NCBI GenBank assembly: GCA_947044405.1
Contig: CAMRHE010000197.1
Location: 434,001 to 498,000 of the forward strand
Reading direction: 5' to 3'
Source of the DNA: Leptodactylus fallax
Taxonomy: Eukaryota; Chordata; Amphibia; Anura; Leptodactylidae
DNA: 64,000 nt
Made by a program: the position numbers and the translations under genes. The notes below the pieces were generated by a model that saw only the letters and a program-made list of their open reading frames with translations, was not told the DNA's origin and made no database searches. Shown in pieces: positions 2,119 to 63,164 of this stretch (its first letter is position 1; each line of letters opens with the position of its first letter).

Positions 2119-2154
<36 letters not shown>
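2119..2154. repeat. (TA)n microsatellite, left flank of LTR element
   Basis: Pure TA dinucleotide run directly abutting the 5' LTR. A matching TA run follows the 3' LTR at 10401, so the element inserted into an existing TA microsatellite. The target duplication therefore cannot be delimited beyond 'an AT-alternating word'. Confidence 0.9.
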
Positions 2155-2157
<3 letters not shown>

Positions 2158-2590
2158 GAGAGTATGAACCTAGAGGGCGCTAGGGAGCGACCCAGGCAAG
2201 CCCTGAAAAGGCCCTCAGCCACACCTTTGGGTGGGGCGTGTATCTCCAGAAGGCTGGAGAAACCTGCTTGGAGCAGGAAATGGTGGACCAGCCTAGGACA
2301 GAGAGGCAGTCTGTCCCAGAGGGCTTGGATCCAGAGAGGACTTACAAAGACTAAGTCAGGCTCTTATTGCCCCAGAGGCTAGTTAGGGACTCAAGGAGTC
2401 AGTGAGTGCCCTAACTGTGGCATAGGTTTTTTTTGTTGTTTTGTTATGTTGCAGTTAAGCTAAATAAAGCCCGTTTATTTTACACTTGGACCGTCTGAAA
2501 GCAATCTTTCCGGCGCCCAGTACCATGAACCACCACTGTCCGGACCAGGAAAAGCCGCCATTTTGAGTCTAATTCCCCCAAGCTGTAACA
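2155..2590 (+). repeat. 5' LTR
   Basis: About 436 bp, near-identical to 9966-10400. It starts TGTGAGAGTATG and ends CTGTAACA. An AATAAA polyadenylation signal lies at about 2463, followed by a T-rich stretch, as expected for the R region. No TATA box is obvious. Confidence 0.9.
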
Positions 2591-3041
2591 TATGGTGGAG
2601 AATCGCGCGCATAAAGAGATCCACGCAAGTCCTGGAAGACAAGTGGTTTGTGATTGCAGTACTGCAAAGTGTGCATTGTGGCCTACAGCTGGAAGAAATC
2701 TGTGATTTCAACTTAAGAAACATAGCAAGGTGTTTGTAAAACTCTGGAAGAGGAATCCAGGGAATGGACTTTGTGTATACTGTGGCACAGAAGTCTATAA
2801 AGTGCTTGCTGATTTCAAGAAAATAAGCAATGTGTGTAGAAGCTGGATATTGCAAACAGTCTATGTGAAAGTCTATGGTGCCATGTTGGTGTTTTCTGTG
2901 GAAGACAGAAGAAAATGCTGGTTGTTGTAGTGCCACATAAGTTAACTGTTTGAATACATGTGACTGCAGAAGATAGCAAAAAGTTGCTGCTGGTTGAACC
3001 CAAGGTTGCTGTGGAATATTGTGTAATCTTGTTAGTAAACC

Positions 3042-3818
3042 ATGGGCAAGAAAAAGAGAATTTCAGCTTGTAAAAAAGCAGAGAAGTCATGCACAGGTTT
3101 ATTAGTGCAGCAGTCTGAGTGCAGAGAGACACAAAACCCGGAACAGATCATGTGGAGTGCAAGTAAAGATAATGTGTTGCATGATGGTGACTCAGTTTTT
3201 CTAAAGCACCTCTGTTCTATGAATGAATATGTCCCTGTTGACTGTACTGGAGTGCGTCAAAGCGCCAAAGATGAAAATATTATGGTGCAGCAGCTTCAAG
3301 ATGAGATTAAAACCATCAGGTTCATTTATGAAGATGAAATATCTGATTGGAAATGGCAACTTGAGGTATCAGAAAAAGAGAACCTTAAGTTAAAGAAAGA
3401 GCTTGAAACTGTAAAGAGTTCATATCCTAGTCATTGTGAAAATGTGGTACTGGGTTTGCCTGGAATGGACTGTGTCACTAAGAAGGAGTTTGCTGATATG
3501 AAATGTGCTCTAGCTAATAAAGTTGTACAGAGCGTAAAGCAAAAGCAAGTGCTTGAGAAGCAATTGCAGGATTTAAAGGAGCAGAATGTCCAAGACTCCA
3601 TTGCCAAAGAGAGTGTCATTGAAAAAATAAGAGATGACCTTGAAACTGCTAAACGTGAGAGAAGTGAATTTTTGCAGTGTCAATCAGAATGTTTGGATGA
3701 ACAAGTCAGGAAGTGTGAAGAACTTTCGGCTGCATTAACGGACAAAGAAAATGAAATTGCAGAGCTGAGGAAGCATGTGTCTGACCGAGAGAGTGATTTA
3801 GAATCTGTGGTGGAAGAG
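3042..3818 (+). pseudogene. captured coiled-coil ORF, 5' part (interrupted)
   Basis: This is the first part of the LTR element's internal reading frame. It starts at an ATG in good context (aaaccATGGG) about 450 bp after the 5' LTR. The N-terminus is basic (GKKKRISACKKAEK). From about residue 80 it is a charged heptad-type coiled coil with few prolines. It stays open for 256 codons until the Penelope-like element at 3810, whose sequence supplies an artificial stop (TGA at 3819-3821). The frame evidently resumes at about 7057. I do not recognise the N-terminal 100 residues. There are no introns, as expected for sequence that passed through an RNA stage. What is seen: an open frame and coiled-coil composition. 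What is inferred: that it is the front of the same protein as 7061-9562. Confidence 0.75.
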
Positions 3819-3871
3819 TGAAGAAATCAGGCAATACCTTTTAGAGGCTAACTGAGTATATTTATAAGTAA

Positions 3872-3903
3872 GCTTTCAGGAGTACTCGCTCCCTTCATAA
3901 GAC
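3872..3903 (-). ncRNA. hammerhead-ribozyme-like motif, core damaged
   Basis: On the minus strand the left pLTR reads CTTATGA, a short stem, then GAAAGC. The copy in the right pLTR has the canonical CTGATGA. The G-to-T change in the invariant core predicts loss of self-cleavage. Confidence 0.6.
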
Positions 3904-4168
3904 ATGGTGTGATACAAGAACTGAAAATTAACAGATTTTTATACACATGGTTTTCAAAGCATTTTAGAGTCCTTAAAAAAAATTGCAATCTAAGTAGAGA
4001 AGTTATTTACAACAGGTCAAAAAAACAGTCTGGAAACTTGTGGTGCGTGACGGAGGGATCAGTAATTCTTGCTGTTATCTGTTTGCTATCAGGAGGTGAT
4101 TTGTGTCCCTCACAGTTCATGCATAGTTTGATTTGAAGCTGGCATGAATATTGAGTTCAGTTCATGGT

Positions 4169-6829
4169 TCAAACATAGTGTGACATGAAGCTGGCATGAA
4201 TATTAAGTCCAAATTGCAGAGTTTGAAATTTTTGCATAAATTTGTACTCCATTTCTTTCCTTTTCTCCTGTGTCTTAAAATGTCCCATTAAAACCACAAC
4301 CCACAAATCTTCAATAGAGTGGTTTTCTCCGGAGAAATGTGCGGCCACTGGGAGATCTGTTCTGCTGTTATTAATGGTGGATCTGTGTGAGTTCATTCGT
4401 TGACTGAGTCTCTGCCCTGTTTCCCCCACATAGAGGCCTGTGGTGGGACATTGCACACACATTATGAGGTACACCACATTGGAAGACCTGCAGGAAAATG
4501 TCCCCCTAATTCTGTGCACCTGTTGTGACTGTGGGATAGGTACACTGTCAGCGGTGTGGATGTGCTTGCAGGTCATGCACCTTTTATGTAGGCAAGGTGA
4601 GGTGCCATTTTCAGTTGGGGCCTTCAGGGCACTCCGGACGATAATGCGCCTCAGGTTTGGTGGTTGTCGAAAGGAGAGGGGGGGACTGGAAATATGTCCT
4701 TGAGTCTGTTGTCCCTATGTAGGACAGGTTGGAGCTCCTTGGCAATCCTTCGTAGGATCTCCAGCTGTGGGTTGTAGGTGACAACTAGGGGCACTCGGGC
4801 ATCTTTCTGGGTCTCTCTATATGTGAGCAGACTGTCTCTGTTAATGGCTGCTGCTTTGTTTAATTGGTTGTCTGTCACTTTTGGTTTGTATCCCAATCTG
4901 AGAAAATTCATCCTCAGATCCAAGAGGTGTTTGTCCAGGTCTGTTTTGTCGGAGCAAATACGATTGTATGGTATAGCCTGGCTGTAGATTATAGATTGTC
5001 TTGTGTGCTTGGGGTGGAAGCTGTCGTTTCTCAGGTAGGCCGTTCTGTCTGTGGGTTTGTGGTGTATTGATGTGAGTAGCCGGTGGTCTTTAATGTATAT
5101 TGTGGTATCCAGAAAGTGAATTTCACTCCCTGAATAGCTAAGTTTAACGTTGATGGTAGGGTGAAAGTCATTGAAGTCATTATGGAATTGAAGTAGGGCC
5201 TCCTCACCTGCAGTCCAGATGACAAGGATATTATCGATATAACGAAGGTAAATCATAGGTTTGGTGGCGCATGTTGATAAATATGTTCCTTCCATTTCTG
5301 CCATAAAGAGATTTGCATATTGGGGTGCACATCTGGTCCCCATTGAAGTTCCCATTCGCTGTAGATATAGATCCTCTCCAAAGGTAAAATGGTTGTGGCT
5401 AAGGATGAATTGTATGAGCTGCGTTACTGGTTCTGTTGGGAGGTTTTGTTTTGCCAGGTGTACCCGACATGCTGCAACTCCATCCTTGTGGGGAATGTTG
5501 GTATACAGGGATTCCACATCCATGGTGGCCAAAATGGTACCCTCAGGTAGAGGGCCCAGGGCATTCAGTTTGTTAAGAAGGTCAGTGGTGTCCTGGATAT
5601 AGCTTGGAGTATCCCTGACAAGGGGTTTTAGGAGATTTTCCACCCAACCTAAGATGTTTTCTGTCAGTGTCCCAATGCCAGAAATGATAGGCCTCCCAGA
5701 GTTGCCATCTTTGTGTATCTTTGGGAGCATATAGAAGCAGCCCGACCTGGAATCTTGTGGGATAAGTCCTTTTACCTGATTCTGGATCTGGACTGGAAAC
5801 TCCTTGATCATACTCTTTAGTTCTTTCATATAGGCCTTCTATGGGATCACTTCCAAGTTTGGAGTAATGGATGGGATTTGACAGTTGCCTGTTTGCTTCC
5901 TGGATATAGTCTGAGGTGTTCATTATGACTATTGCGCCCCCTTTGTCAGCCGGTTTTATTATTATATCCTGATTTTCTTTCAGTGAAGTAATAGCCTTCT
6001 GTTCCTGCAGGGTTAGGTTATGCACCTGTTTCTTTTGTTTCTCCAGGATTTCTGATTTTACTTTGCTTCTGAAACAGTCAATATATTTATCCAGTGCTGC
6101 ATTAGCTCCAGGGCGTGGGGTCCAGGTAGATTTTTTGGTAGGATTCCTTATGGGCTGTTCCATCTCAGAGTCGCTGCTGTATGGAAGGTGTTTGTCATAA
6201 AAATATTCCCTTAATCTCATTTTTCTGAAAAACTCCTCCATATCATTGCAGAGTTGGATATGGTCAGTGTGTGCCGAGGGGCAGAAGGAGAGACCTTTGG
6301 AGAGAACTGACATTTCGTGTTTGTTTGGCTCATAAGAGGAAAGATTCACAACACAGCTTTGCTGAGCTGGGCTAGTATTTGCGGTTGTAGTAATGAGGCC
6401 TTTTTGTCTCAGTCTGTGGAGCTTTTTCTTTTTGTTGTTAATAAGCATATCCTGAAGTTTCCAGTAGTATGTGTGGAGTTTGGCCTTCATTTCCTCTGTG
6501 TCATTAGCCAATGATGATTTCAGGGCCTGTATCTCTTCCTGTGTTCTTTTTTTGTTGTTATAGGAAATTTTTATTATATTGTTCCGCAGCCTTTCAGATG
6601 TCCGAATACATAGTTGTTCTGCATATCGGCTGTTGTAGGTGTTCCGGGTTGGGTTACGTAAATTGAAGCCTTTTGGGATGAGTCTCTCCTTTTTGCATTT
6701 TGTTAAGAAGAAGATGTCGCTGTTGAGTTGTGCAAGTTTCTTAAGCCGGTTTTTCAGTTCCATTCTTTTGCGGTACATTGTGGTATCTTTCAAGTTGATA
6801 GCAGTATGATGTTGTACCGTGTTAGCCAT
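4169..6829 (-). pseudogene. PLE reverse transcriptase + GIY-YIG endonuclease, broken
   Basis: One PLE polyprotein split over three frames. The segment 6829-5582 (probable start MANTVQHH at 6829) carries the N-terminal region with the PLE-typical phrase IIKPADKGGAIVIM. The segment 5829-4651 carries the RT fingers/palm (MLPKIHKDG, RPIISGIG, ATMDVESLYTNIPH, GTSMGTRCAPQYANL). The segment 4660-4169 carries the GIY-YIG nuclease (VVYLIMC, then LYVGETGQRLSQRMNSH). At least two frameshifts are needed, one near 5820 and one near 4680 in a C/G homopolymer. The catalytic YIDD box reads YIDN (AAT at 5230-5232), removing one metal-binding aspartate. This copy cannot encode an active RT even if the frame were intact. 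Confidence 0.88.
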
Positions 6830-6899
6830 TGAAAGTAGTGGAAGAGTGAAGAAATCAGGCAATACCTTTTAGAGGCTAACTGAGTATATTTATAAGTAA

Positions 6900-6931
6900 G
6901 CTTTCAGGAGTACTCGCTCCCTTCATCAGAC
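6900..6931 (-). ncRNA. hammerhead ribozyme motif in PLE pLTR
   Basis: Minus-strand core: CTGATGA, a stem II of about four pairs (AGGG with TCCT), then GAAAGC. PLE terminal repeats are known to carry hammerhead ribozymes, so this is expected for the family. Unlike the 3872-3903 copy, the CUGAUGA core is intact. Confidence 0.65.
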
Positions 6932-7056
6932 ATGGTGTGATACAAGAACTGAAAATTAACAGATTTTTATACACATGGTTTTCAAAGCATTTTAGAGTCC
7001 TTAAAAAAAAATTGCAATCTAAGTAGAGAAGTTATTTACAACAGGTCAAAAAAACA

Positions 7057-9562
7057 GACATTGCAGCCAGAGCAAAACTTGCATGCACTAAAGCAAGTTT
7101 GCCTAAATAGTGAAGTCAACGAATGGCGGAGCAGAGCTGGAGTTCTGGAACAAAGAGGAATGGAACTCAAAGCTAGAATATGTAGCCTGGAGAGGGCGCT
7201 CTCAGGATCTTGTGAAGATAATGAGAAGTTGTCTGTTTTGGTGCAAAATAAAGACAAAGAATTGATGGAGATGTCGTCTGTCCATGCTCAGAAAGTGCAA
7301 ACCTTACAGGAGAGTCATAAAAAAGTAGAGACTCAACTTCAAGAGCTGCAACTAAAAGTCACAGAAGGGGACAGGTTTCAAGCAGAGCTGCTAGACAAGG
7401 CAAATAGACTACAGGTGGAATTGGATAATGTCACAGGGCTTCTGTCTCAAGCAGACAGCAAGTTTATCAAACTTTCCAAAGAGTTGTCTACACTAGAATC
7501 TCAGCTTCAGGACACTCAGGAACTTTTGCAAAAAGAAACTCGTCAGAAGCTTGACCTTAGTACAAAACTAAAACAAATGGAAGATGAGAAAAATGGTTTC
7601 CTTGAGCAACTAGAGGAAGAGGAGATAGCAAAAAGAGATTTGACAAAGCAGATTTCAACACTACAGGCTCAGGTGACTGATATGAAGAAAAAAATGGAGG
7701 ATAATATTGGGTCCTTGGACTCTGTTGAAGAACTAAAGGAAAAGTTGCAAAAGGAGCTAGAAGCTACAAATCAACGGTTTGAGGAGAAGGTTGCTGCTTA
7801 TAACAAACTTGAGAAGATGAAAATTAGACTGCAGCAGGAACTAGAAGATGTAGGTGTAGATCGTGATCATCAACGTCGGATGGTGTCAAATTTGGAAAGG
7901 AAACAGAAAAAGTTTGATCAGCTGCTTGGTGAAGAGAAGACTCTTTCTGCTAGATATGCAGAAGAACGTGACCATGCTGAAGCAGGGGCCCTTGAATTGA
8001 AGGCCGAGTTAGAGAGGCTCAACAAGCAACTGCACACTGAAATGGAGGATTTGGTTAGCTCCAAGGATGAAGTTGAGAAAAACCTGGAATCTGTGCAGAT
8101 ATTGTATGAGAACAAAGCTAATGCTTATGACAAGCTGGAAAAGGCCAAGAGAGAATTGGACCTCCAGGTAGAAGACATGAGGATTCAATTTGAGGGAAAC
8201 TTGTCTAATTTATCTACTGAGATTGTAGATTTAAAAATGCTTGTTGCTAAACTAAAGGTGCAAGTGAACAAGCAGGAGGAAATCAAGGAACATCTGGAGT
8301 TTCAGATGGATCAAGTGAAGCGCAAGTCAGAAATAAAGTTGGAAGAGCGCACTTTTCAGATTGAACAGTTAAAAACCAAAGTGGAATCTAAAAAAGAAGA
8401 ATTGGATCGATTGCAGCAGTCTTTATCCAATACTGAACAGTCGGCATCTGCACTATCTTCAAAGCTGGCAGCACTAGAAGATGAGAGAGACTCGCTGCAG
8501 AACCTGTTAACCTCTAAAGAATCAGAGCTGTTATCCCTGAAAAATGTGATTCAAGAAATAGAATCTTTATTCAACCAAGAGCAAGATAAGAGAGCCACTG
8601 AGATACGGGACTTGAATGAAAGACTTGACAAAAAGTCTGCAGATGAGCAGAAGCTTTATCAGAAGATGTTGGAGGATCAATCCAATATAATTCAGGGAAC
8701 AGTGGGGGAAGCAGAAAATATTATCCAGGATGCTGACCTGACAAATGTTAGAAGAACATTGCAGAATATCCTAGAATTAGGAGGCGTAGTGGATAAAGAG
8801 ATGGCATCTACATCTGCTGCCATAGAAGATGTCAGGAAGATTGAGGAAGTTCTGCAAGTTGCAATAGCAAAAACTGAGATGGAGGCTGTGCAGAAAAATG
8901 TGGCAGTGAAGAAAGTTCCGGAACTGGAATCAGAGATTTGTGCGCTACAGAAGGCGATAGAATTGAAGAAAGCTGCCAGCATAGAGGCAGAGAAAGCAGA
9001 ACCATTAAGGCAGCCAGAACATGTAATCCAAAAGCATCTGGGTGCTGACAGAAAAAACTGTGATGGTGAAAACTTGGTATCCCAGTCCTCCGGTGTTAGC
9101 ACAGGGAATGAAAATAACTTGAAGAATGTTGAGATGATGATGTCACCAGCTCCTGTACTGTCAGAAAGGAGTTGGCACGAAAATTCTTGTAATTTATCAC
9201 AGCACCGCAACATGCCTCCAGAAAGTTATGGGTATGAGAAAGAGGAGGTTAGACTAGAGTGTGGAAGTGGTTCTCCGGCTGCGGTACAAGTGTGGAAGCA
9301 ATATACAGAAACCATTCCAATATATGATGTGGCAGTTGTTAAAGACATATCAGAAAATGTAGTTCAGCGTGAGCTATTTTGTGAGGGTGTACTGTATGGC
9401 CCTTGTGCAGAAGGAAAAGATATTGCAGTACAGAGCTTGTGTATCTCAAACAAAGAGGAGAGCAAGCAGCCTATGTCTCCTAAACTTCTAAGCCGTGATG
9501 GTGATGGCAAGGTGAAGGTTACAGAAAAGGTACCCATGAAATATTCATACTCTAGACATTGA
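7057..9562 (+). CDS. captured chimera: myosin II rod + HIP1-like coiled coil
   Basis: About 833 codons without introns, ending TGA at 9560-9562. There is no ATG at the left edge (first codons ACA TTG CAG), as expected for the continuation of the frame begun at 3042. Counting from TTG at 7061, residues 100-400 match vertebrate non-muscle myosin II heavy-chain rod: [18 protein letters not shown] (117-134), [52 protein letters not shown] and [16 protein letters not shown]. Compared with myosin, about 20 residues appear missing near residue 310. Residues 450-610 ([38 protein letters not shown]) resemble the coiled coil and pre-THATCH region of HIP1/HIP1R. The C-terminal 220 residues are unrecognised and non-coiled. 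No myosin motor, no RT. If expressed it would be a cytoplasmic coiled-coil protein. Frame integrity suggests recent capture or selection. Confidence 0.8.
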
Positions 9563-9951
9563 TGTGCATGAAGTACATGTTGGTTGGTCTCTGAGCTCCT
9601 GTGGATTCGTCATAGGAGAAGATGAAGATTCTTGCGGCTATTCACTAGATGAATCGAGGTCATGCAATGGGATGGCTGAAGACTGTAGCGAGAGATGTGA
9701 TGAAGATGATGTGATCCACTGTGTGGCGAGTTGTGAAGGTGATGAAGCGGAACTTGCCTTTGCACGGAATGGCCAGGATCTTGGCGTGGCATTTAAAGGG
9801 AGGAGAGAACTGAGAACTCGATGGAGCGGTATTCGGAAGAGGAGACCGCCAGATGGGGACATCTGGAGAGACATGGGACAATTGTATAGGATTGAAGAGG
9901 GACGGTGACATATGTCTTGTCCCATTGTAGCTCACCCCATGGGTAGTGAGC
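9563..9951 (+). other. 3' internal region of LTR element, unknown
   Basis: Between the coiled-coil stop and the polypurine tract. A 114-codon frame (9564-9908) is open and acidic, then basic, but resembles no family I know and could be chance. It may be untranslated or a remnant of the parent element. Confidence 0.35.
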
Positions 9952-9965
9952 TGAGGGGGAGGGTA
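9952..9965 (+). promoter_or_regulatory. polypurine tract
   Basis: The tract gagggggagggta lies immediately before the 3' LTR, the expected priming site for plus-strand DNA synthesis. It supports reading 2155-10400 as an LTR element, not a host gene flanked by chance repeats. Confidence 0.75.
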
Positions 9966-10397
9966 TGTGAGAGTATGAACCTAGAGGGCGCTAGGGCGCG
10001 ACTCAGGCAAGCCCTGAAAAGGCCCTCAGCCACACCTTTGGGTGGGGCGTGTATCTCCAGAAGGCTGGAGAAACCTGCTTGGAGCAGGAAATGGTGGACC
10101 AGCCTAGGACAGAGAGGCAGTCTGTCCCAGAGGGCTTGGATTCAGAGAGGACTTACAAAGACTAAGTCAGGCTCTTATTGCCCCAGAGGCTAGTTAGGGA
10201 CTCAAGGAGTCAGTGAGTGCCCTAACTGTGGCATAGGTTTTTTTGTTGTTTTGTTATGTTGCAGTTAAGCTGAATAAAGCCCATTTATTTTACACTTGGA
10301 CCGTCTGAAAGCGATCTTTCCGGCGCCCAGTACCATGAACCACCGCTGTCCGGACCAGGAAAAGCCGCCATTTGGAGTCTAATTCCCCCAAGCTGTC

Positions 10398-10400
<3 letters not shown>
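9966..10400 (+). repeat. 3' LTR
   Basis: About 435 bp, TGTGAGAG to GCTGTCACA. It carries the AATAAA signal at about 10273. Differences from the 5' LTR are scattered transitions plus one T-run length change. Confidence 0.9.

Positions 10401-10437
<37 letters not shown>
10401..10437. repeat. (TA)n microsatellite, right flank
   Basis: TA run continuing the microsatellite split by the LTR element (left half at 2119-2154). Confidence 0.9.
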
Positions 10438-12976: not shown

Positions 12977-15207
12977 TTGTTGAGTCGGGGTCTCTCCTTT
13001 GTCCCTACCACCAAGTTTGATTCTTTTAACTGGGTGAAAGATATTCATTTGTTTATTCATAAGTTAAAGTGGAAAAAATATTTTATCTTACAACAACAAA
13101 GACAAGTACAGGAACTTAATATTGCCTCAGAAGACATACAGGTGCATAAAGATTTGATGTCCCTATTACAGGAACAAACTAGACAAATAGGTGAGGGTCC
13201 TTTTTCTGATCTAAGACCCACATCTACTAGAATGGCTCCTATAGGTGACGGCACAGTACTGGATGTCTTTCTTACGGTTGTTACAGATAAATTACGCCAC
13301 TTACATCAAAGGTTTAATGATAACCTCTCTGATGAAGAAAGAACAGCACTTATGAAATTAAGTAGAAATGAACAGATAATTATCAAACCCTCAGACAAAG
13401 GAGGTAATGTGGTGGTCTTGAATAGGGACCACTACGTTGATATATGTAAAAATATTCTTAAGGATACCACTGGATATAGACAACTTAGAAATAATCCTAC
13501 GGTTGAATTCTCCAAGGTATTGAGAGAAATTTTAGAACCAGCTAAAACCCAGCATTTGATTACCGAAGATGAGTATCAATTCCTTCTTCCACAATATCCT
13601 CAGGTTGCTACTTTTTATTGTGTCCCCAAATTACATAAAGGTACTGACCCATTAAAAGCCCGCCCGATAGTTTCGGGAATAGGGAGCCTCACTCAGAATG
13701 TCAGCTTATATTGTGACCAGATTTTGAGGCCATTCGTGGCTTCTTTACCATCTTACGTCAGAGACACCACGGACGTATTGCTTAAGTTGGAGGGAATAGT
13801 ATGTGAGCCTGGTACTTATTTGGCCAGTCTAGATGTTGAGGCTCTCTACAGCTCCATCCCGCATAATAAGGGCTGTGAGGCTGTGGAGAATTTCCTCGAC
13901 ACTAGGGGTATTCAATATGCTGGACACAATAAGTTCACTATTTCCCTTCTTAAATTTGTGTTGGAGCATAATTACTTTACATTTGATCAAACATTCTTCC
14001 ACCAGCTCAGGGGAGTTGCTATGGTGAGCCCTTGTGCACCTACTTATGCTAATCTCTTCCTGGGCTGGTGGGAGCGGTCCGTGGTGTTCTCTGAACGTCT
14101 AGAGCCACGGATGGCCTCAGCTATTATCTGGTTGCAATATATCGACGATATATTGATTTTATGGCAGGATACACCAGAACGGTTTGAATTGTTGGTGGCA
14201 GAATTGAATCAGAACGACTTTGGACTATTTTTTACATATGAAATACAAGAGACTTCCATCTCTTTTCTGGACCTTCAAATCACAAAGCAGTCCGATGGAA
14301 CATTACAGACAACGTTATTTAGAAAAAAGACGGCCACCAATAATTTATTAAGATGGTCAAGCTGTCATCCAAGGCCATTATGTAAGGTATTCCACGAGGA
14401 CAGTACCTTAGAGTGAGACGTAATTGCTCCGAGGCGGCAGAGTTCAAAAGAGCGGCAGATGACCTGAGGGAACGGTTTATATCTCGTGGATATCCGGATT
14501 CTATTCTTAGGGAGGCTTACCATGTTGCAAGGACAAAAAATAGACAAACTTTATAGGTACCCAGAGTGCGTGAAACATCCTCAGCAACACGTATTATTGG
14601 GACTTTTGACAATGCACATCATGAAGTCAGACAGGTATTGCAAATGTATTGGGGCATCCTCAAAATAGATCCGGATGTTGGGGACCAGGTGGGGGATTTT
14701 CCGCAGATCACATATAGAAGAGGCCAAAATTTAAGGGACCATCTAGTACACAGTCACATGCCACCACTAACATCTAACCCTACGTGGCTGAGCACGAGGC
14801 ATCTTGTGGGAACATATAGATGTGGTAGCTGTCGGGCCTGTGATCTTGTAAATGTATCCAAATTCTATACGAATATACACACTGGTAACCAATATTCCAT
14901 CAGGGCCAAAGCGAACTGCCGTACAAAAGGGGTCGTTTACTTATTGTCATGCATATGTGGTACACAATATATTGGGAAGACGCTACGGGAATTTCATTGA
15001 CGCATGCTAGAACATGTGGCTGATATTAATAGGAAGGAGGATACTTCAGTAGCAGTCCATGTAAACAATCTGCATGATGGTAATCCAACTTCGATTAAAT
15101 TTCAAGTGCTTGAAGTGGTCACACCACCAATTAGAGGAGGAAATTTTGACAGGAAACTATTACAAAGGGAGTCTACTGTAGATGGATTTTTAGATTACAA
15201 ACCATGA
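12977..15207 (+). pseudogene. PLE RT + GIY-YIG endonuclease, decayed
   Basis: Coding similarity begins upstream of 12977 (in-frame NLSDYSLTSSELSLLSRG), so the true start lies further left past a G-run. The 12977-14416 frame holds IIKPSDKGGNVVVLN, PKLHKGTDPLKARPIVSG, LASLDVEALYSSIPHN and the intact catalytic YIDD at 14138-14149. A frameshift near 14385 moves the frame. A TAG near 14551 and a TGA at 14998-15000 (CGA-to-TGA type) interrupt the rest. The GIY-YIG domain (GVVYLLSCICGTQYIGKT) lies at about 14928-14980, and the C-terminal tail ends at 15205. The RT catalytic residues survive, but the gene is dead through at least three lesions. Confidence 0.88.
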
Positions 15208-17569: not shown

Positions 17570-19218
17570 CAGTCATATGAAAAAGTTTGGGCACCCCTAT
17601 TAATCTTAATCATTTTTAGTTCTAAATATTTGGGTGTTTGCAACAGCCATTTCAATTTGATATATCTAATAACTGATGGACACAGTAATATTTCAGGATT
17701 GAAATGAGGTTTATTGTACTAACAGAAAATGTGCAATATGCATTAAACCAAAATTTGACCGGTGCAAAAATTTGGGTACCCTTATCATTTTATTGATTTG
17801 AATACTCCTAACTACTTTTTACTGACTTACTGAAGCACAAAATTGGTTTTGTAACCTCACTGAGCTTTGAACTTCATAGCCAGGTGTATCCAATCATGAC
17901 AAAAGGTATTTAAGGTGGCCAATTGCAAGTTGTTCTCCTATTTGAATCTCCTCTGAAGAGTGGCATCATAGGCTCCTCAAAACAACTCTCAAATGATCTG
18001 AAAACAAAGATTGTTCAACATAGTTGTTCAGGGGAAGGATACAAAAAGTTGTCTCAGAGATTTAACCTGTCAGTTTCCACTGTGAGGAACATAGTAAGGA
18101 AATGGAAGACCACAGGGACAGTTCTTGTTAAGCCCAGAAGTGGCAGGCCAAGAAAAATATCAGAAAGGCAGAGAAGAAGAATGGTGAGAACAGTCAAGGA
18201 CAATCCACAGACCACCTCCAAAGAGCTGCAGCATCATCTTGCTGCAGATGGTGTCACTGTGCATCGGTCAACAATACAGCACACTTTGCACAAGGAGAAG
18301 CTGTATGGGAGAGTGATGCGAAAGAAGCCGTTTCTGAAAGCACGCCACAAACAGAGTCGCCTGAGGTATGCAAAAGCACATTTGGACAAGCCAGCTTCAT
18401 TTTGGAAGAAGGTCCTGTGGACTGATGAAACAAAGATTGAGTTGTTTGGTCATACAAAAAGGCGTTATGCATGGCGTCAAAAAAACAGAGCATTCCAAGA
18501 AAAACACTTGCTACCCACTGTAAAATTTGGTGGAGGTTCCATCATGCTTTGGGGCTGTGTGGCCAATGCCGGCACCGGGAATCTTGTTAAAGTTGAGGGT
18601 CGCATGGATTCAACTCAGTATCAGCAGATTCTTGAGAATAATGTACAAGAATCAGTGACGAATTTGAAGTTACGCCGGGGATGGATATTTCAGCAAGACA
18701 ATGATCCAAAACACAGCTCCAAATCTACTCAGGCATTCATGCAGAGGAACAATTACAATGTTCTGGAATGGCCATCCCAGTCCCCAGACCTGAATATCAT
18801 TGAACATCTGTGGGATAATTTGAAGCGGGCTGTCCATGCTCGGCGACCATCAAACTTAACTGAACTGGAATTGTTTTGTAAAGAGGAATGGTCAAAAATA
18901 CCTTCATCCAGGATCCAGGAACTGATTAAAAGCTACAGGAAGCGACTAGAGGCTGTTATTTTTGCAAAAGGAGGATCTACTAAATATTAATGTCACTTTT
19001 CTGTTGAGGTGCCCATACTTTTGCACCGGTCAAATTTTGGTTTAATGCATATTGCACATTTTCTGTTAGTACAATAAACCTCATTTCAATCCTGAAATAT
19101 TACTGTGTCCATCAGTTATTAGATATATCAAATTGAAATGGCTGTTGCAAACACCCAAATATTTAGAACTAAAAATGATTAAGATTAATAGGGGTTCCCA
19201 AACTTTTTCATATGACTG
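17570..19218 (+). mobile_element. Tc1-like DD34E transposon, apparently intact
   Basis: TA target on both sides (17568-17569, 19219-19220), long terminal inverted repeats of about 210 bp (cagtcatatgaaaaagtttg at the left end, its complement at the right end), and an open transposase gene between them. Confidence 0.93.
17923..18990 (+). CDS. Tc1-like transposase (DD34E)
   Basis: The 355-codon frame is open to TAA. It has an N-terminal paired-like double helix-turn-helix (about residues 20-130) with a GRPRK AT-hook-type linker at 74-78. The catalytic triad is D168 (WTDETK), D259 (QQDNDPKH) and E294 (SPDLNIIEHLW), spacing 34, with the glycine box [11 protein letters not shown]. It would cut and paste the element at TA dinucleotides in the nucleus. 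The start is uncertain: the first ATG gives about 18 residues more than typical family members, and the conserved part begins near SKQLSNDLK. All catalytic residues are present, so it could be active. Confidence 0.88.
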   Translation: MQVVLLFESPLKSGIIGSSKQLSNDLKTKIVQHSCSGEGYKKLSQRFNLSVSTVRNIVRKWKTTGTVLVKPRSGRPRKISERQRRRMVRTVKDNPQTTSKELQHHLAADGVTVHRSTIQHTLHKEKLYGRVMRKKPFLKARHKQSRLRYAKAHLDKPASFWKKVLWTDETKIELFGHTKRRYAWRQKNRAFQEKHLLPTVKFGGGSIMLWGCVANAGTGNLVKVEGRMDSTQYQQILENNVQESVTNLKLRRGWIFQQDNDPKHSSKSTQAFMQRNNYNVLEWPSQSPDLNIIEHLWDNLKRAVHARRPSNLTELELFCKEEWSKIPSSRIQELIKSYRKRLEAVIFAKGGSTKY

Positions 19219-28414: not shown

Positions 28415-28797
28415 CTACACTATGTATGAACCATGAACTGAACTCAATATTCATGCCAGTTTCATGTCACACTATGTATGAACTGTGAGGGTCACAAATC
28501 ACCTCCTGATAGCAAACAGATAACAGATCCCTCTGTCACGCACCACAACTTTCCAGATTGTTTTTTGACCTGTTGTAAATAACTTCTCTACTTAGATTGC
28601 ATTTTGTTTTGGTTTTTTTTAAGGACTCTAAAATCCTTTGAAGACCATGTGTATAAAAATCTGTGAATTTTCAGTTCTTGTATAACACCATGTCTGATGA
28701 AGGATGCTTGTACTTCTGAAAGCTTACTTATAAATATACTCAGTTAGCCTCTAAAAGGTATCGCCTGATTTCTTCACTCTTCCACTACTTTCAACAT
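28415..28797 (+). mobile_element. PLE 3' end (pLTR) fragment
   Basis: Reverse complement of the left end of the PLE at 3810-4190, ending gaagaaatcaggc-type sequence in inverted form at about 28797. 5' truncated, no coding sequence. Confidence 0.85.
28692..28723 (+). ncRNA. hammerhead motif in PLE fragment
   Basis: CTGATGA (28694-28700), stem II AGGA with TTCT, then GAAAGC (28718-28723). Same position in the pLTR as 6900-6931. Confidence 0.62.
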
Positions 28798-30086: not shown

Positions 30087-32116
30087 GATGTTTTTCAAAA
30101 TGTCCTATTTACTTTGTGTTCCTTTCACTTTGAGAATATTGGTCCACATATACTAAGGCAGATGTGCCTTGAAAATGGTCAAAAATGCGCCTCAACAATT
30201 TTTGGTGTACTGTGACGAATCTCAGCCACTGTGCTCCATTCGCCACTATTTTAGACAGTGGGCAGAGCGAGGCAGAAGGCTGGTGTGAGTTATACCACAA
30301 ATCTACGCCAATCCCTGACTGCAACCAGGTGCAACTCCATGCACTAGAATTACTAAGAGGCCTGAGCATCTTAGTAATCCTAGCGGGTTGTGCGCCTGGT
30401 GGGGAGTTAATTAAGAGTGGCATAAGAATTACCAGTCTTAATAAATTCCTCCCATTTTATGCTGCTAAGATCCTCTTAGCTGGTGACAATTGGCCTTCCT
30501 GAAGTTTGGTGTTTTTGTAAAAGTAGAGAATAAAAGCCGGTTCCAGCATCCAGAAATTTAAATAAAATATAACTTTTAATTCATGTAAAATTTAAAAAAA
30601 AGGTAACAACAGTTACATGAGAAGAGGATCCGTAACCAATCCTACGCGTTTCAGGGCGTCTAGCCCCTTAGTCATGGCTTGGTGTTTTTGTACCCTCTCT
30701 GCTAAACATCTTAAAAACGTATTATGTTGTGGTCATTATTACCTAGCTAACCTCTACTTTTGACAATGTCTGGTCCATTTTTCAGAATTAGGTTTAAAAG
30801 TGCCTCTTGTTGGGTCCTGCACTAATTGTGAAAGGTAATTGTCTTTTATTACTGTCAAAAACCTATTACCTTTGTTGGACCTGCAGGTTTCTGCCTCACA
30901 ATTTATTTCTGGATAATATCATAGATTGTAAGCCCTTGCGGGCAGGGCCCTCTAGCTCACTGTGCCAGTTGGTCTCTGTTAGCATTATCTGTTTTGTATA
31001 TCTGGTGTACCGTATGTAAATCCGCAAATGTAATGCACCGTGGAATTAATGGTGCTATATAAATAAACAATAATAATAATATAAATAGACAATAATAGCT
31101 GAAATTCCCTATAAGAATGAATTCATGATGTTTTGTGGCCTCATCAATTTGTCTTATTAGTAAATTTTCAGCTTTTTTCCATTATTTTTAGGGACTTGTA
31201 ACAAACCCGTTTAAGTATTTTATTATTTTTTTTTATCCCTCCCTTTATTTCCACCCATAGAGACTCAACATTTTCCTTTCAGATGTCATCAGGTAGGACA
31301 GTCTTAAAGAGGTTTTCCCACCTCCCTCTCTCAGCAGTTTGCCTGCTGTCTCTTCTTCTCACTTCCTGTATTCTTCAACAAGCTGGTTTCGGCTTTGTCT
31401 ATTTGATGGACAGGACACTTTGAAGTACCCCAGTAGATAAAGACATTGCCTTTACCATGAGAGATTATTTATTATGATTACTAGAAATCTATAATAATGC
31501 AGATCAAATAATATGCAAAGGAAATGTACAGTATATTACATTACACAGGTTTGTATAAAACCGGTTGTCTAAACTCTTAAAATAATAAATTTTATTAATA
31601 CAAGTTAAAAAGGTTACAATCAAACCCAACAATTGTGTACCTCAATGTGGCATAACAGGTTACCTTCCCAATAATGCTTGAAGAACAGAGGAGAAATCCC
31701 AGTCATATAATTATATGTACCTGGGTAATTGGCCTAGCTAACTCTTCTCCTTGGAAGGAATAATTGGTTTATAACTGAGGTGCATCCATTTGATGTTTTT
31801 TTTAAGGGTGCTCTCTTTTTAAACCATAAAAAACCTAGGAATATCCACAGGTAACTGTAACATCAACAACCGTCACTAACAACCAGTGTTGATCTAGGTA
31901 GAGTATCAGTGTCATGTATTTTAATGACTCGCATATTTCTTCTAAATGGTCTTATTATGTACTTGTAGAATACATAGTGAGGCAAAATTTGAGACTAATC
32001 ACTAAATTCTAACTGTCCTCTGGGTAGGTCTATTACTCTCTTTACTTCATGCACTTCATAATATTTGGTGCTATAAAGTGTAAGAGTACTACTTTATGCC
32101 CACAGTTGCCCATCTA
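30087..32116. repeat. no gene; PLE-relic and SINE-like repeats
   Basis: No gene. The stretch 30632-30672 (minus) reads CTAAGGGG, stem, CCTGAAACGCGTAGG, a degenerate hammerhead-like PLE relic. The stretch 30925-31077 is a dispersed repeat (agattgtaagcccttgcggg to gctatataaataaa) ending in an (ATA)n tail, common in frog DNA and LINE/SINE-like. CTTAAAGAGGTTTTCCC at about 31303 may be a TTAA-MITE end. Confidence 0.55.
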
Positions 32117-33683
32117 CAGTCATGGCCAAAAGTTTTGAGAATGACACAAATATTATATTTTCACATGATCTGCTGCCCTCTGGTTTTTATGTGTGTTTGT
32201 CAGATGTTTTTATCACATACAGAAATATAATTGCATTCATATTATGAGTAACAGAAGCTTATATTGACAGTTAGAATGAGTTAATGCAGCAAGTCAATAT
32301 TTGCAGTGTTGACCCTTCTTCTTCAGGACCTCTGCAATTCTCCCTGGCATGCTCTCAATCAACTTCTGGACCAAATCCTGACTGATAGCAGTCCATTCTT
32401 GCAGAATCAATGCTTTAATTTTGTCTGAATTTGTTGGTTTTTGTTTGTCCACCCGTCTCTTGATGATTGACCACAAGTTCTCAATGGGATTAAGATCTGG
32501 GGAGTTTCCAGGACATGGACCCAAAATCTCTATGTTTTGTTCCCTGAGCCATTTAGTTATCACCTTTGCTTTATGGCAAGGTGCTCCATCATGCTGGAAA
32601 AGGCATTGTTGAGCGCCAAACTGCTCTTGGACGGTTGGGAGAAGTTGCTCTTGGAGGACATTCTGGTACCATTCTTTATTCATGGCTGTGTTTTTAGGCA
32701 AGACTGTGAGAGAGCCGATTCCCTTGGCTGAGAAGCAACCCCACACATGAATGGTTTCAGGATGCTTTACAGTTGGCATGAGACAAGACTGGTGGTAGCG
32801 CTCACCTCTTCTTCTCCGAATAAGCTGTTTTCCAGATGTTCCAAACAATCGAAAAGGGGATTCATCAGAGAAAATGACTTTACCCCAGTCCTCAGCAGTC
32901 CACTCCCTGTACCTTTTGCAGAATATCAGTCTGTCCCTGATGTTTTTTCTGGAGAGAAGTGGCTTCTTTGCTGCCCTCCTTGAGACCAGGCCTTGCTCCA
33001 AGAGTCTCCGCCTCACAGTGCGTGCAGATGCACTCACAACTGCCTGCTGCCATTCCTCAGCAAGCTCTGCACTGCTGGTAGCCCGATCCCGCAGCTGAAA
33101 CACTTTTAAGAGAAGGTCCTGCCGCTTGCTGATCTTTCTTGGGCGCCCTGGAGCCTTTTTGGCACCAATGGAACCTCTCTCCTTGAAGTTCTTGATGATG
33201 CGATAGATTGTTGACTGAGGTGCAATCTTTCTAGCTGCAATACTCTTCCCAGTTAGGCCATTTTTGTGCAGTGCAATGATGACTGCACGTGTTTCTTTAG
33301 AGATAACCATGGTTAACAGAAGAGAAACAATGATGGCAAGCACCAGCCTCCTTTTAAAGTGTCCAGTGGTGTCATTCTTACTTAATCATGACAGATTGAT
33401 CTCCAGCCCTGTCCTCATCAACACCCACACCTGTGTTAATGGAGCAATCACTGAAACGATGTTAGGTGGTCCTTTTAAGGCAGGGCTGCAATGATGTTGA
33501 AATGTGTTTTGGGGGATAAAGTTCATTTTCTAGGCAAATATTGACTTTGCAAGTAATTGCTGTTAAGCTGATCACTCTTTATAACATTCTGGAGTATATG
33601 CAAATTGCCATTAGAAAAACTGAAGCAGTAGACTTTGTAAAAATTAATATTTGTATCATTCTCAAAACTTTTGGCCATGACTG
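32117..33683 (-). mobile_element. Tc1/mariner DD35E element, copy 1 (Traveler-like)
   Basis: 1567 bp, TA-flanked, with short inverted ends (cagtcatggccaaaagtttt and its complement). It contains an uninterrupted transposase gene. The twin at 49084-50650 has the same length and near-identical sequence in the opposite orientation. Confidence 0.93.
32294..33343 (-). CDS. Tc1/mariner transposase, DD35E
   Basis: Open for 349 codons, ending at TGA or TAA just left of 32294. The likely start is the internal ATG at 33310 (ACCATGG context, MVISKETRAV), giving 338 residues. The upstream ATG at 33343 only adds a hydrophobic leader. N-terminal HTH pair, GRPRK at 66-70, catalytic D160 (FSDES), D252 (QHDGAPCH), E288 ([11 protein letters not shown]). 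The D252-E288 spacing is 35, not the 34 of classical Tc1. This matches the DD35E group described from vertebrates as Traveler (recognition, unverified). All catalytic residues are present. Compared with the twin it has changes such as KRQDLL for KWQDRL and GPCPGN for GPWPGN. Confidence 0.9.
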   Translation of the reverse strand: MLAIIVSLLLTMVISKETRAVIIALHKNGLTGKSIAARKIAPQSTIYRIIKNFKERGSIGAKKAPGRPRKISKRQDLLLKVFQLRDRATSSAELAEEWQQAVVSASARTVRRRLLEQGLVSRRAAKKPLLSRKNIRDRLIFCKRYREWTAEDWGKVIFSDESPFRLFGTSGKQLIRRRRGERYHQSCLMPTVKHPETIHVWGCFSAKGIGSLTVLPKNTAMNKEWYQNVLQEQLLPTVQEQFGAQQCLFQHDGAPCHKAKVITKWLREQNIEILGPCPGNSPDLNPIENLWSIIKRRVDKQKPTNSDKIKALILQEWTAISQDLVQKLIESMPGRIAEVLKKKGQHCKY

Positions 33684-34189
33684 TAGATTAGTTACATGCC
33701 ATTCCTGAACACAGTGTGGCTCTATGATATCATCAGCTCTGAGGACTGATTGAGAGTCCTGGCTATCGGTATTTGTCAGACACTGTGTTCATGGGTATCT
33801 ATTTTGTTGCACCTGTGATTGGATGTTAGTGGTCACATGGGGTGTGCTGAAGTCATAACGCTGGGTTAATGCATCAGGGCATCAATGCCCCCACGTGACC
33901 GCTGAGGTCAATTCACAGGCCTCAGTGATCATCCCAGGGGCGCATGATGTCATAAGAGGCCTAAAAGAACATAGGGTGACCACAGAATGCCGCGAGGATG
34001 CCCAGAAGAGGTGAGGCAAGGTGAGTATGAGTGTGTGCCATTTTTCCTCACATCCCCTGGGCCTCCACTTATAATACTCTGGGGTCTGAGCAGACCCCAC
34101 AGTACAATAATTCAATGAAACAAATTGGGGAGATGAACTTCACAAATATTCATTGAAACGAATATTGTGGGGTTCGCTTATCTATACTA
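33684..34189. repeat. no gene; dispersed repeat remnants
   Basis: No gene. The stretch 33885-34115 resembles 26380-26580 (ggcgcatgatgt, cccctgggcctcc, actctggggtctga). Nothing else recognised. Confidence 0.45.
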
Positions 34190-43757: not shown

Positions 43758-45384
43758 CAGTGCCTTTCGAAAGTATTCGGCCCCCTTGAACTTTTCAACC
43801 TTTTGCCACATTTCAGGCTTCAAACATAAGGATATAAAATTTTAATTTTTTGGTGAAGAATCAATCAAGTGGGACACAATCGTGAAGTGGAACGAAATTT
43901 ATTCAATATTTTAAACTTTTGTAAAAACTAAAAAACTGAAAAGTGGGGCGTGCCAAATTATTCGGCCCCCTTAGGTTAATACTTTGTAACGCCCCCTTTT
44001 TCTGCGATTACAGCTGCAAGTCGCTTGGGGTATGTCTCTATCATTTTTACACATCGAGAGACTGAAATTCTTGCCCATTCTTCCTTGGAAAACAGCTCGA
44101 GGTCAGTGAGGTTGGATGGAGAGCGTTTGTGAACAGCAGTTTTCAGCTCTTTCCACAGATTCTCGATTGGATTCAGGTCTGGACTTTGACTTGGCCATTC
44201 TAACACCTGGATACGTTTATTTGTGAACCATTCCATTGTAGATTTTGCTTTATGTTTGGGATCATTGTCTTGTTGGAAGATAAATCTCCGTCCCAGTCTC
44301 AGGTCTTTTGCAGACTCCAACAGGTATTCTTCCAGAATGGTCCTGTGTTTGGCTCCATCCATCTTCCCATCAATTTTAACCATCTTCCCTGTCCCTGCTG
44401 AAGAAAAGCAGGCCCAAACCATGATGCTGCCACCACCATGTTTGACAGTGGGGATGGTGTGTTCAGGGTGATGAGCTGTGTTGCTTTTACGCCAAACATA
44501 TCGTTTTGTATTGTGGCCAAAAAGTTCGATTTTGGTTTCATCTGACCAGAGCACCTTCTTCCACAAGTTTGGTGTGTCTCCCAGGCGGCTTGTGGCAAGC
44601 TTTAAACGAGACTTTTTATGGATATCTTTGAAAAATGGCTTTCTTCTTGCTACTCTTCCATAAAGGCCAGATTTGTGCAGTGTACGACTGATTGTTGTCC
44701 TATGGACAGACTCTCCCACCTCAGCTGTAGATCTCTGCAGTTCATCCAAAGTGATCATGGGCCTCTTGGCTGCATCTCTGATCAGTGTTCTCCTTGTTTG
44801 AGATGAAAGTTTAGAGGGACGGCCGGGTCTTGGTAGATTTGCAGTGGTCTGATACTCCTTCCATTTCAATATGATCGCTTGCACAGTACTCCTTGGGATG
44901 TTTAAAGTGTGGGAAATCTTTTTGTATCCAAATCCGGCTTTAAACTTCTCCACAACAGTATCACGGACCTGCCTGGTGTGTTCCTTGGTCTTCATGATGC
45001 TCTCTGCGCTTTAAACAGAACCCTGAGACTATCACAGAGCAGGTGCATTTATACGGAGACTTGATTACACACAGGTGGATTATATTTATCATCATCAGTC
45101 ATTTAGGACAACATTGGATCATTCAGAGATCCTCACTGAACTTCTGGAGTGAGTTTGCTGCACTGAAAGTAAAGGGGCCGAATAATATTGCATGCCCCAC
45201 TTTTCAGTTTTTTATTTTTTTACAAAAGTTTAAAATAACCAATAAATTTCATTCAACTTCACAATTGTATCCCACTTGTTGATTCTTCACAAAAAATAAA
45301 AATTTTATATCTTTATGTTTGAAGCCTGAAATGTGGCAAAAGGTTGAAAAGTTCAAGGGGGCCGAATACTTTCGCAAGGCACTG
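43758..45384 (-). mobile_element. Tc1-like DD34E transposon, apparently intact
   Basis: 1627 bp, TA on both sides (43756-43757, 45385-45386), inverted ends cagtgcctttcgaaagtatt and its complement. TIR homology extends about 200 bp inward. A truncated relative is at 27587. Confidence 0.93.
43976..44995 (-). CDS. Tc1-like transposase (DD34E), full length
   Basis: 339 codons, the usual Tc1 length, starting MKTKEHTRQVRD and ending GGVTKY. Double HTH N-terminus with RPGRPSK linker at 56-62. Catalytic D152 (WSDETK), D243 (QQDNDPKH), E278 ([11 protein letters not shown]), spacing 34. Glycine box [11 protein letters not shown]. No stop or frameshift seen. The start is chosen because it is the first ATG and gives the family-standard N-terminus. 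Probably a recent arrival and potentially active. Confidence 0.92.
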   Translation of the reverse strand: MKTKEHTRQVRDTVVEKFKAGFGYKKISHTLNIPRSTVQAIILKWKEYQTTANLPRPGRPSKLSSQTRRTLIRDAAKRPMITLDELQRSTAEVGESVHRTTISRTLHKSGLYGRVARRKPFFKDIHKKSRLKLATSRLGDTPNLWKKVLWSDETKIELFGHNTKRYVWRKSNTAHHPEHTIPTVKHGGGSIMVWACFSSAGTGKMVKIDGKMDGAKHRTILEEYLLESAKDLRLGRRFIFQQDNDPKHKAKSTMEWFTNKRIQVLEWPSQSPDLNPIENLWKELKTAVHKRSPSNLTDLELFSKEEWARISVSRCVKMIETYPKRLAAVIAEKGGVTKY

Positions 45385-48300: not shown

Positions 48301-49083
48301 GAGGGAGAGGCAGTAGTCCTATGTAAAATACCATAGGACTGCTGCCTCTTCCTCCATGTTAAGCAGACCTGTGTAAAATTACTGTACACAAGACTGCTTT
48401 ACATGTAGTGACAGGTAGCAGTCCTATGGTATTTAACACAAAAAATGTGATAATTCCACTTTCTGTAAAACATCACTATTATTTTTGATGGAAAAAGAAG
48501 TGTGACTTTGAGGGTCCAATGCCATGCAGATCTGTTTACAAAAGCTTTCCATGTAGGAAAGGGACCATGAACTACAAGAGGTCTGGCATAAAGGGGTTGT
48601 TCCATCAAAAGAGAAAGATATGCAAATGAGATACTAAGCGATAGGTATTGTTTTAGTGCTGTGGATTTGTTACTTTGGACAAAGATAATCTCTAGGCTCA
48701 GATCACAAGTCAAAGTGTAACCCTCACAGTCTACAGGACTATAAAAGGACATAAGAAGGTGTTACTGATGAAAGAATAAGTCATTGTGCTTTGTATAAAA
48801 GTAAAGTATCCTTGAACTTAGATACAAAAACATCAGCATAATGCTCCACTAGTAAATTGTTAATGCTGTTAATTATTACTATTACAAAATATAACCCCAT
48901 TTAAAAAAAAAGGAAGGGCGAACCATATTCCGATACCATTATTTTGTAAATGATGGCGCTGTTTGAGAGATTGATTTTTAGTTATTTCAGCATGCATAAG
49001 ATTTTTTTGTTCAAGCAAAATAAATAATAAATAATAAAAAAATGTAAAATTGTTAAAGAACTTTGTATAATTTCATAGAACTA
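45387..49083. repeat. no gene; large palindrome and hairpins
   Basis: No gene. The stretch 45735-46195 is an imperfect foldback centred near 45965 (gcccaaacagcagtttatat versus ataaactgcagtttgggcac). The stretches 47411-47453 (atatcagggaaagtttgtt with its complement) and 47462-47498 (catgatcgggacct with its complement) form strong hairpins. The latter region resembles degenerate frog repeats. Between 47640 and 48840 nothing is recognised. Confidence 0.55.

Positions 49084-52512: not shown

Positions 52513-63164
<10,652 letters not shown>

What the first reader, a model, noticed from the sequence alone, without database searches (positions are those of the whole stretch)
2155..10400. LTR retroelement whose cargo is a captured cytoskeletal coiled-coil gene
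Two LTRs, a polypurine tract and TA-repeat flanks define the element. Its interior has no visible gag-pol but encodes a ~1100-residue intronless coiled-coil protein containing non-muscle myosin II rod sequence. Gene capture by LTR elements is known from transforming retroviruses and plant elements. A vertebrate LTR element devoted to a myosin-derived coiled coil is, to my knowledge, undescribed. A self-assembling coiled-coil protein could act in place of, or interfere with, particle assembly or transport (speculation).
Basis: partly seen in the sequence, partly recalled or inferred. Interest (0 to 1): 0.9.

Follow-up and report, generated by a model that had tools for sequence, protein, structure and literature searches.

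The report
Retroelement carrying a multi-gene host chimera
A retrovirus-like mobile element in an animal genome seems to have lost its own genes and to carry instead a long reading frame fused from pieces of several host genes (a myosin rod, a clathrin adaptor and probably an RNA-binding protein), which was later broken by another jumping element.

Summary
Confirmed: one LTR element at 2155-10400. Its LTRs differ by 9 substitutions and 1 indel, with a primer-site position and a polypurine tract just inside and TA repeats just outside. No gag-pol was found in the frames scanned.

Corrected: a Penelope-like element (3807-7057) splits the frame into 259 and 833 residues, and the cargo is more than myosin. 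Piece B runs MYH9-type rod, HIP1/HIP1R clathrin-binding coil and THATCH start, a second MYH9 piece out of order, then an hnRNP U-like SPRY in the next frame. The myosin core is 72% identical to MYH9 (68% with gapped ends); MYH9-MYH10 is 69%. Piece B has no stop where neutral drift of that size leaves about nine.

Best reading: a non-autonomous LTR element made by repeated capture of host mRNAs, like maize Bs1. Single-gene capture by vertebrate ERVs is published; I saw no multi-gene animal case in the listings of ten searches. Copies could not be counted: the genome search did not complete and the protein database was off.

The parts
2120..2154 (.). (TA)n tract, left flank / target
   Evidence: only two (TA)8+ tracts in the window, 2120-2153 and 10402-10437
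2155..2590 (+). 5' LTR, TGTGAG...TGTAACA
   Evidence: 97.7% identical to 9966-10400
2593..2610 (+). primer-binding-site position, TGGTGGAGAAT..., two bases inside the LTR; tRNA-Ala suggested from memory only
   Evidence: tRNA identity recalled, not tested
2591..3041 (+). leader without a long reading frame on the plus strand
   Evidence: three-frame translation; no plus-strand frame of 80 aa or more
3042..3821 (+). piece A of the reading frame, 259 aa (255 before the insert's repeat), heptad pattern from residue 76, source gene not identified
   Evidence: heptad signal 0 of 1000 shuffles for residues 76-255, 277 of 1000 for 1-75; no convincing Pfam or PDB match
3807..7057 (-). Penelope-like element inserted in the reading frame: direct repeats 3807-4028 and 6835-7057, RT and GIY-YIG in separate minus-strand frames
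   Evidence: RVT_1 and GIY-YIG; repeats differ by 2 substitutions and 1 indel
7061..9562 (+). piece B of the reading frame, 833 aa
   Evidence: 500 shuffles of the same bases give at most 148 open codons
7271..8194 (+). MYH9-type rod segment (residues 71-378 of piece B; myosin-9 1232-1542)
   Evidence: PDB 9syu E 7e-91; 161 of 223 identical in the gap-free core, 199 of 294 over all aligned residues
8255..8497 (+). HIP1/HIP1R clathrin-binding coiled coil
   Evidence: PF16515 54.3 bits, cut-off 28.8, E 1.8e-14; PDB 2no2 (HIP1) E 7.2e-4
8774..8863 (+). stretch like HIP12 (= HIP1R, start of its THATCH domain; both names recalled)
   Evidence: PDB 1r0d E 2.1e-4
8834..8998 (+). second MYH9-type segment (1079-1133), upstream in MYH9 but downstream here
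   Evidence: PDB 9syu E 4.6e-6; all 6 sequences listed are myosin II heavy chains
8999..9559 (+). rest of piece B, source unknown apart from its last residues
   Evidence: no Pfam match at E 1 and no PDB match at E 1; no heptad signal for residues 651-833
9540..9812 (+). hnRNP U-like SPRY segment in the frame next to piece B's
9953..9963 (+). polypurine tract GAGGGGGAGGG, followed by TA
9966..10400 (+). 3' LTR, TGTGAG...TGTCACA
10401..10437 (.). (TA)n tract, right flank / target

Best explanation
A non-autonomous LTR retroelement (ERV- or Gypsy-like, class undetermined) whose interior was replaced by spliced host mRNA sequence. During reverse transcription inside particles made by an autonomous partner, the enzyme switched templates repeatedly between the element RNA and co-packaged host mRNAs (MYH9, HIP1 or HIP1R, a SPRY gene most like HNRNPU, and perhaps a further coiled-coil gene for piece A). 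The result was one chimeric reading frame between a retained leader with primer site and a retained polypurine tract and LTR. The element then moved in trans for long enough for its frame to diverge strongly while staying open. It inserted into a TA repeat (a few million years ago under assumed rates) and was later broken by a Penelope-like element. SHOWN: element anatomy, host-like segments and their order, open pieces, later insertion. INFERRED: template switching, help in trans, a single joined frame before the insert, selection on the protein. Most likely role of the protein: a coiled-coil oligomer that favours the element's own spread, for example by bringing its RNA or the partner's particles to actomyosin- or clathrin-linked sites (weak, about 0.25).
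For: LTR pair, primer-site position, polypurine tract and single-site TA flanks. MYH9 source: at 70 sites where MYH9 and MYH10 differ, the element agrees with MYH9 at 35, MYH10 at 11 and neither at 24. HIP1/HIP1R. Second MYH9 piece out of order. SPRY, hnRNP U-like. Constraint: the element changed 27 of 153 sites that MYH9 and MYH10 share; neutral drift to that level leaves on average 9.5 (kappa 2) or 8.6 (kappa 4) stops in 833 codons, with none in 1 of 1000 and 0 of 1000 runs; the 27 changes are milder than neutral ones (mean BLOSUM62 0.37 against -0.27 and -0.21; 1.8% and 4.4% of runs reach it). Mechanism precedent: template switching between LTR element and cellular mRNA (passages of PMC5408686).
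Against: One copy only; no second copy, partner element or transcript could be sought. The constraint test uses solved-structure proteins (human, recalled), starts from the element's own codons, counts host-lineage changes too, and would also be passed by selection before capture (a host retrogene). Absence of new prolines in the core is not significant (7.8% and 6.5% of neutral runs). Heptad core positions are not better conserved than others (a 0.76, d 0.75; f 0.81, c 0.75, g 0.72, e 0.67, b 0.59). Piece A's source is unknown. A keratin coil also matches the HIP1-like region weakly (E 0.0074).
Confidence: 0.7

Rival explanations
1. Passenger cargo: the chimera was captured in one or a few aberrant reverse transcription events and has no function. 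Its divergence reflects a fast-evolving source gene or an error-prone viral phase before insertion.
For: Capture of host gene fragments by plant LTR elements is well documented (PMC13317346 passages). LTR divergence alone predicts only 1.3 stops in piece B since insertion, none in 28% of runs, so the open frame says nothing about the time after insertion.
Against: No stop in 833 codons despite 28% difference from MYH9 in the myosin core, and mild substitutions. The plant review also reports negative selection on most of about 1,235 rice genes it ascribes to LTR capture.
Confidence: 0.3
2. A host chimeric retrogene (MYH9-HIP1-HNRNPU) existed first and evolved under host selection. The LTR element captured it whole in one step.
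For: Explains the open frame and divergence with a single capture; not excluded by any result here.
Against: Out-of-order MYH9 pieces around HIP1/HIP1R sequence need several joins in any case. No such gene known to me (recalled, not searched in a protein database).
Confidence: 0.15
3. A defective transforming-type retrovirus that transduced growth- or trafficking-related host genes and became endogenous once.
For: Retroviruses that capture host mRNA usually lose part of their coding domains (section 15 of PMC4299795).
Against: Known transforming viruses keep parts of gag or other viral genes (recalled); none found in the frames scanned. Large divergence from the donor does not fit a recent capture.
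Confidence: 0.1
4. Chance assembly: a LINE-made retrocopy lying between two unrelated solo LTRs.
For: None found.
Against: Primer-site position and polypurine tract lie exactly inside the LTRs; TA target sequence only on the outer sides; three host sources between them.
Confidence: 0.02

Closest known systems
Maize Bs1 (LTR element with segments of three host genes; PMC13317346 passages)
   Same: LTR element whose hybrid reading frame is built from segments of three different host genes
   Different: Plant; other genes; here most captured parts are coiled coil and the frame is later split by a Penelope-like element
Crocodilian CrocERV29 (KIT-ligand) and CrocERV31 (nectin3) (PMC4299795 passages and section 15)
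   Same: Vertebrate ERV carrying captured host mRNA; nectin3 ORF about 76% identical to the host protein; purifying selection reported
   Different: One host gene each, and viral genes largely kept (nectin3 is at the expense of env); here several genes and no gag-pol found
LTR-mediated retroposition in animals (Tan and coworkers, seen only as cited in passages of PMC5408686)
   Same: Template switching between LTR element and cellular mRNA
   Different: There described as a way to make retrocopies; here a complete LTR-to-LTR element with several donors
Penelope-like elements (definition recalled; RT plus GIY-YIG)
   Same: RT plus GIY-YIG and direct terminal repeats at 3807-7057
   Different: A later insertion, not part of the LTR element

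Membership tests
LTR retroelement | two near-identical LTRs beginning TG and ending CA | tested here: met
LTR retroelement | primer-binding site just inside the 5' LTR | tested here: inconclusive
   TGG-type site in the right place; tRNA match recalled, not tested
LTR retroelement | polypurine tract before the 3' LTR | tested here: met
   GAGGGGGAGGG at 9953-9963; 14 purine runs of 11 or more lie in the element, but only one other is as G-rich (4669, inside the later insert)
LTR retroelement | target-site duplication | tested here: inconclusive
   4, 6 or 8 bp fit inside a TA repeat
Autonomous ERV or Gypsy element | gag-pol | tested here: not met
   no such domain in the three plus-strand frames scanned; the RT present lies on the minus strand with a GIY-YIG frame, inside the insert; leader not scanned
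Non-autonomous LTR family | further copies and a partner sharing the LTR | not testable with these tools
   no further LTR copy in the window; the genome search did not complete
Bs1-like multi-gene transduction | segments of several host genes in one element, without introns | tested here: met
   absence of introns is inferred from continuous protein similarity in an open frame
Bs1-like multi-gene transduction | hybrid frame transcribed and translated | not testable with these tools
   no expression data held
ERV with captured gene under purifying selection | dN/dS below 1 | not testable with these tools
   no donor or copy DNA; only an indirect stop-codon and BLOSUM test
Penelope-like element (insert) | RT with GIY-YIG endonuclease and direct repeats | tested here: met

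The most novel reading that the evidence does not exclude
A vertebrate mobile family that gave up all viral genes and lives on a protein assembled from host parts: a myosin II rod for filament assembly, a HIP1/HIP1R clathrin-binding coil and an hnRNP U-like SPRY. This protein would steer the element's RNA or a partner's particles through the host's own transport machinery, so that the frame evolves as a selfish gene.
Probability: 0.25. Interest if true: 0.85.

Novelty: new variant of a known kind. Interest (0 to 1): 0.62.

Why it matters
If confirmed, it is an animal counterpart of maize Bs1: an LTR element that shuffles pieces of unrelated host mRNAs into one long frame and keeps it open through large divergence. 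It would make testable whether a retroelement can persist on a wholly host-derived protein, and how often template switching among several mRNAs creates new multi-domain genes in animals.

Tried and rejected
Copies and relatives. LTRs, leader, pieces A and B and the tail against the window: no copies beyond the element itself. Piece B against IMG/VR: 6 pattern matches, none confirmed. An LTR 35-mer in IMG/VR: 0 matches. Piece B against GTDB species genomes: 50 pattern matches, none confirmed. These collections are viral and prokaryotic, so the negatives say little about animal genomes.

Piece A: searched whole and in part. Only weak coiled-coil-type matches, none trusted (best Pfam TCO89, E 8.4e-4, under its cut-off).

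Retrocopy between two solo LTRs: rejected on primer-site position, polypurine tract and outer-only TA tracts.

Selection signals that did not come out: heptad core not better conserved, proline avoidance not significant, post-insertion stops uninformative.

Paper searches: in the titles and abstract starts listed I saw no multi-gene host chimera in an animal LTR element. Searches returned nothing; one search returned one unrelated paper; some searches listed only 15 of 22, 15 of 40, 12 of 56 and 12 of 17 papers. The library holds open-licence papers only. Papers asked for but not held: PMC2899935 and doi 10.1101/gr.204925.116.

Full report
WHAT IS THERE. The finding names one LTR element at 2155-10400, and that is right. 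Two copies of a 435/436-bp repeat lie at 2155-2590 and 9966-10400. They differ by 9 substitutions and 1 indel (97.7% identity). Each begins TGTGAG and ends ACA. Just inside the 5' LTR stands TA followed by TGGTGGAGAAT; just before the 3' LTR stands GAGGGGGAGGG followed by TA. The outer ends touch TA repeats, and these two are the only tracts of eight or more TA units in the 64 kb. Two unrelated solo LTRs would not have a primer-site position and polypurine tract on their inner sides and the same repeat on their outer sides only. The duplication of the target cannot be measured in a TA repeat (4, 6 and 8 bp all fit). That the primer site would suit tRNA-Ala is from memory. With assumed substitution rates of 1-2.5e-9 per site and year, the LTR difference of 2.1% would mean roughly 4-10 million years; the rates are assumed, not tested.

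THE INTERIOR. On the plus strand there is a 451-bp leader without a long frame, then a frame of 259 residues (piece A, 3042-3821), an interruption, a frame of 833 residues (piece B, 7061-9562), and a 114-residue frame (9564-9908). The interruption is a Penelope-like element (name from recalled definition). Between direct repeats of 222 and 223 bp (3807-4028, 6835-7057; 2 substitutions and 1 indel) the minus strand carries RVT_1 (E 1.7e-9) and GIY-YIG (E 5.8e-7) in separate frames. None of the three plus-strand frames (A, B, 114 aa) matches a retroviral gag, pol or env family; the leader was translated but not scanned.

SOURCES OF THE FRAME. Piece B, in order. (1) Non-muscle myosin II rod: Pfam Myosin_tail_1 E 5.5e-89; best PDB match myosin-9, residues 1232-1542, E 7e-91; 15 of the 16 PDB sequences at E 1e-3 or better are myosin heavy chains, the other is HIP12. 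In a gap-free core of 223 residues the element equals MYH9 at 161 (72.2%) and MYH10 at 137 (61.4%); MYH9 and MYH10 equal each other at 153 (68.6%). Over all 294 aligned residues, gapped ends included, identity to MYH9 is 67.7%. At the 70 core sites where MYH9 and MYH10 differ, the element sides with MYH9 at 35, MYH10 at 11 and neither at 24. (2) The clathrin-binding coiled coil of HIP1/HIP1R: PF16515, 54.3 bits against a cut-off of 28.8, E 1.8e-14; PDB HIP1 (2no2) E 7.2e-4, with a keratin coil at E 0.0074 behind it. In the scan of whole piece B this family matched one stretch only, residues 400-479, not the myosin part. (3) A stretch like HIP12 (HIP1R; start of its THATCH domain, names recalled): PDB 1r0d, E 2.1e-4. 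(4) A second MYH9 piece, residues 1079-1133, E 4.6e-6; all 6 sequences listed are myosin II. It lies upstream of (1) in MYH9 but downstream here, so the order is scrambled. (5) About 180 residues without a match. By eye, the last residues of piece B resemble the hnRNP U stretch just before this, so the similarity passes from one frame to the other. Piece A has a heptad pattern from residue 76 (0 of 1000 shuffles reach its signal; residues 1-75: 277 of 1000), but its source is unknown. By the same test, shuffles reaching the signal in piece B were 43 (residues 1-84), 0 (85-310), 1 (311-400), 0 (401-560), 74 (561-650) and 765 (651-833) of 1000 each.

CONSTRAINT. Random mono-nucleotide shuffles of piece B have at most 148 open codons in 500 trials; observed 833. 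More telling, the element changed 27 of 153 sites that MYH9 and MYH10 share. When piece B was drifted neutrally to that level, it held on average 9.5 or 8.6 stops (kappa 2 or 4), and runs without a stop were 1 of 1000 and 0 of 1000. The 27 changes are milder than neutral ones (mean BLOSUM62 0.37 against -0.27 and -0.21; reached in 1.8% and 4.4% of runs). Against this: no new proline arose, but that happens in 7.8% and 6.5% of neutral runs; the heptad core is not better conserved than other positions; part of the change belongs to the host lineage; the drift was started from the element's own codons; and selection may have acted before capture. Since insertion, only 1.3 stops would be expected in piece B anyway (28% of runs have none), so its present openness says nothing about function at this locus.

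MECHANISM. Best account: a defective LTR element moved by a partner's proteins acquired spliced host mRNAs by repeated template switching in the particle. This process is described for LTR elements and cellular mRNAs, with several switches held to be possible in theory (passages of PMC5408686). Loss of part of the viral coding domains is the usual cost of capture (section 15 of PMC4299795). The frame was then probably kept for its protein. What that protein did is open. A rod that can oligomerise, joined to clathrin-binding and SPRY parts, could help trafficking of the element's RNA or particles, or could interfere with the host counterparts; no result here tests this.

COMPARISON. Maize Bs1 carries segments of three host genes (passages of PMC13317346). 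Crocodilian ERVs captured KIT-ligand and nectin3, the latter about 76% identical to the host protein, with purifying selection reported (passages and section 15 of PMC4299795). Host gene transduction by ERVs and LTR elements is said to be reported occasionally in diverse animals and plants (passages of PMC6431247). The present element works like Bs1 in what is probably a vertebrate. It differs from the crocodilian cases in having several donor genes and no gag-pol found. That the window is from a vertebrate is inferred from MYH9-type myosin and several Tc1-type elements; the species is not known. In the listings of ten paper searches (some cut short, open-licence library only) I saw no animal LTR element with a multi-gene host chimera in place of gag-pol.

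LIMITS. The genome search did not answer in eight tries, and the protein database was off.

Noticed in passing
12977-15000: A second RT-bearing frame on the plus strand, by eye Penelope-like (RVT_1 E 7.2e-5, under its cut-off; the following frame matched no GIY-YIG in Pfam), without DNA similarity to the insert inside the LTR element at E 1e-10.
   Followed up: partly
32113-33686 and 49081-50654: Two Tc1-type transposon copies, 99.2% identical and in opposite orientation, both with open 349-residue transposase frames.
   Followed up: partly
17923-18990 and 43976-44995: Open Tc1/Sleeping Beauty-type transposase frames of 355 and 339 residues.
   Followed up: partly
58696-59834: A stretch with long overlapping open frames on both strands, G+C-rich by eye, runs into a Tc1-type DDE_3 remnant.
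   Followed up: no
28417-28557: 86% match to one end of the Penelope-like element at 4029-4181, a further fragment of that family.
   Followed up: no
9540-9562: The hnRNP U-like similarity passes from piece B's frame to the next one (by eye); whether that is decay or was part of the working element cannot be told from one copy.
   Followed up: partly
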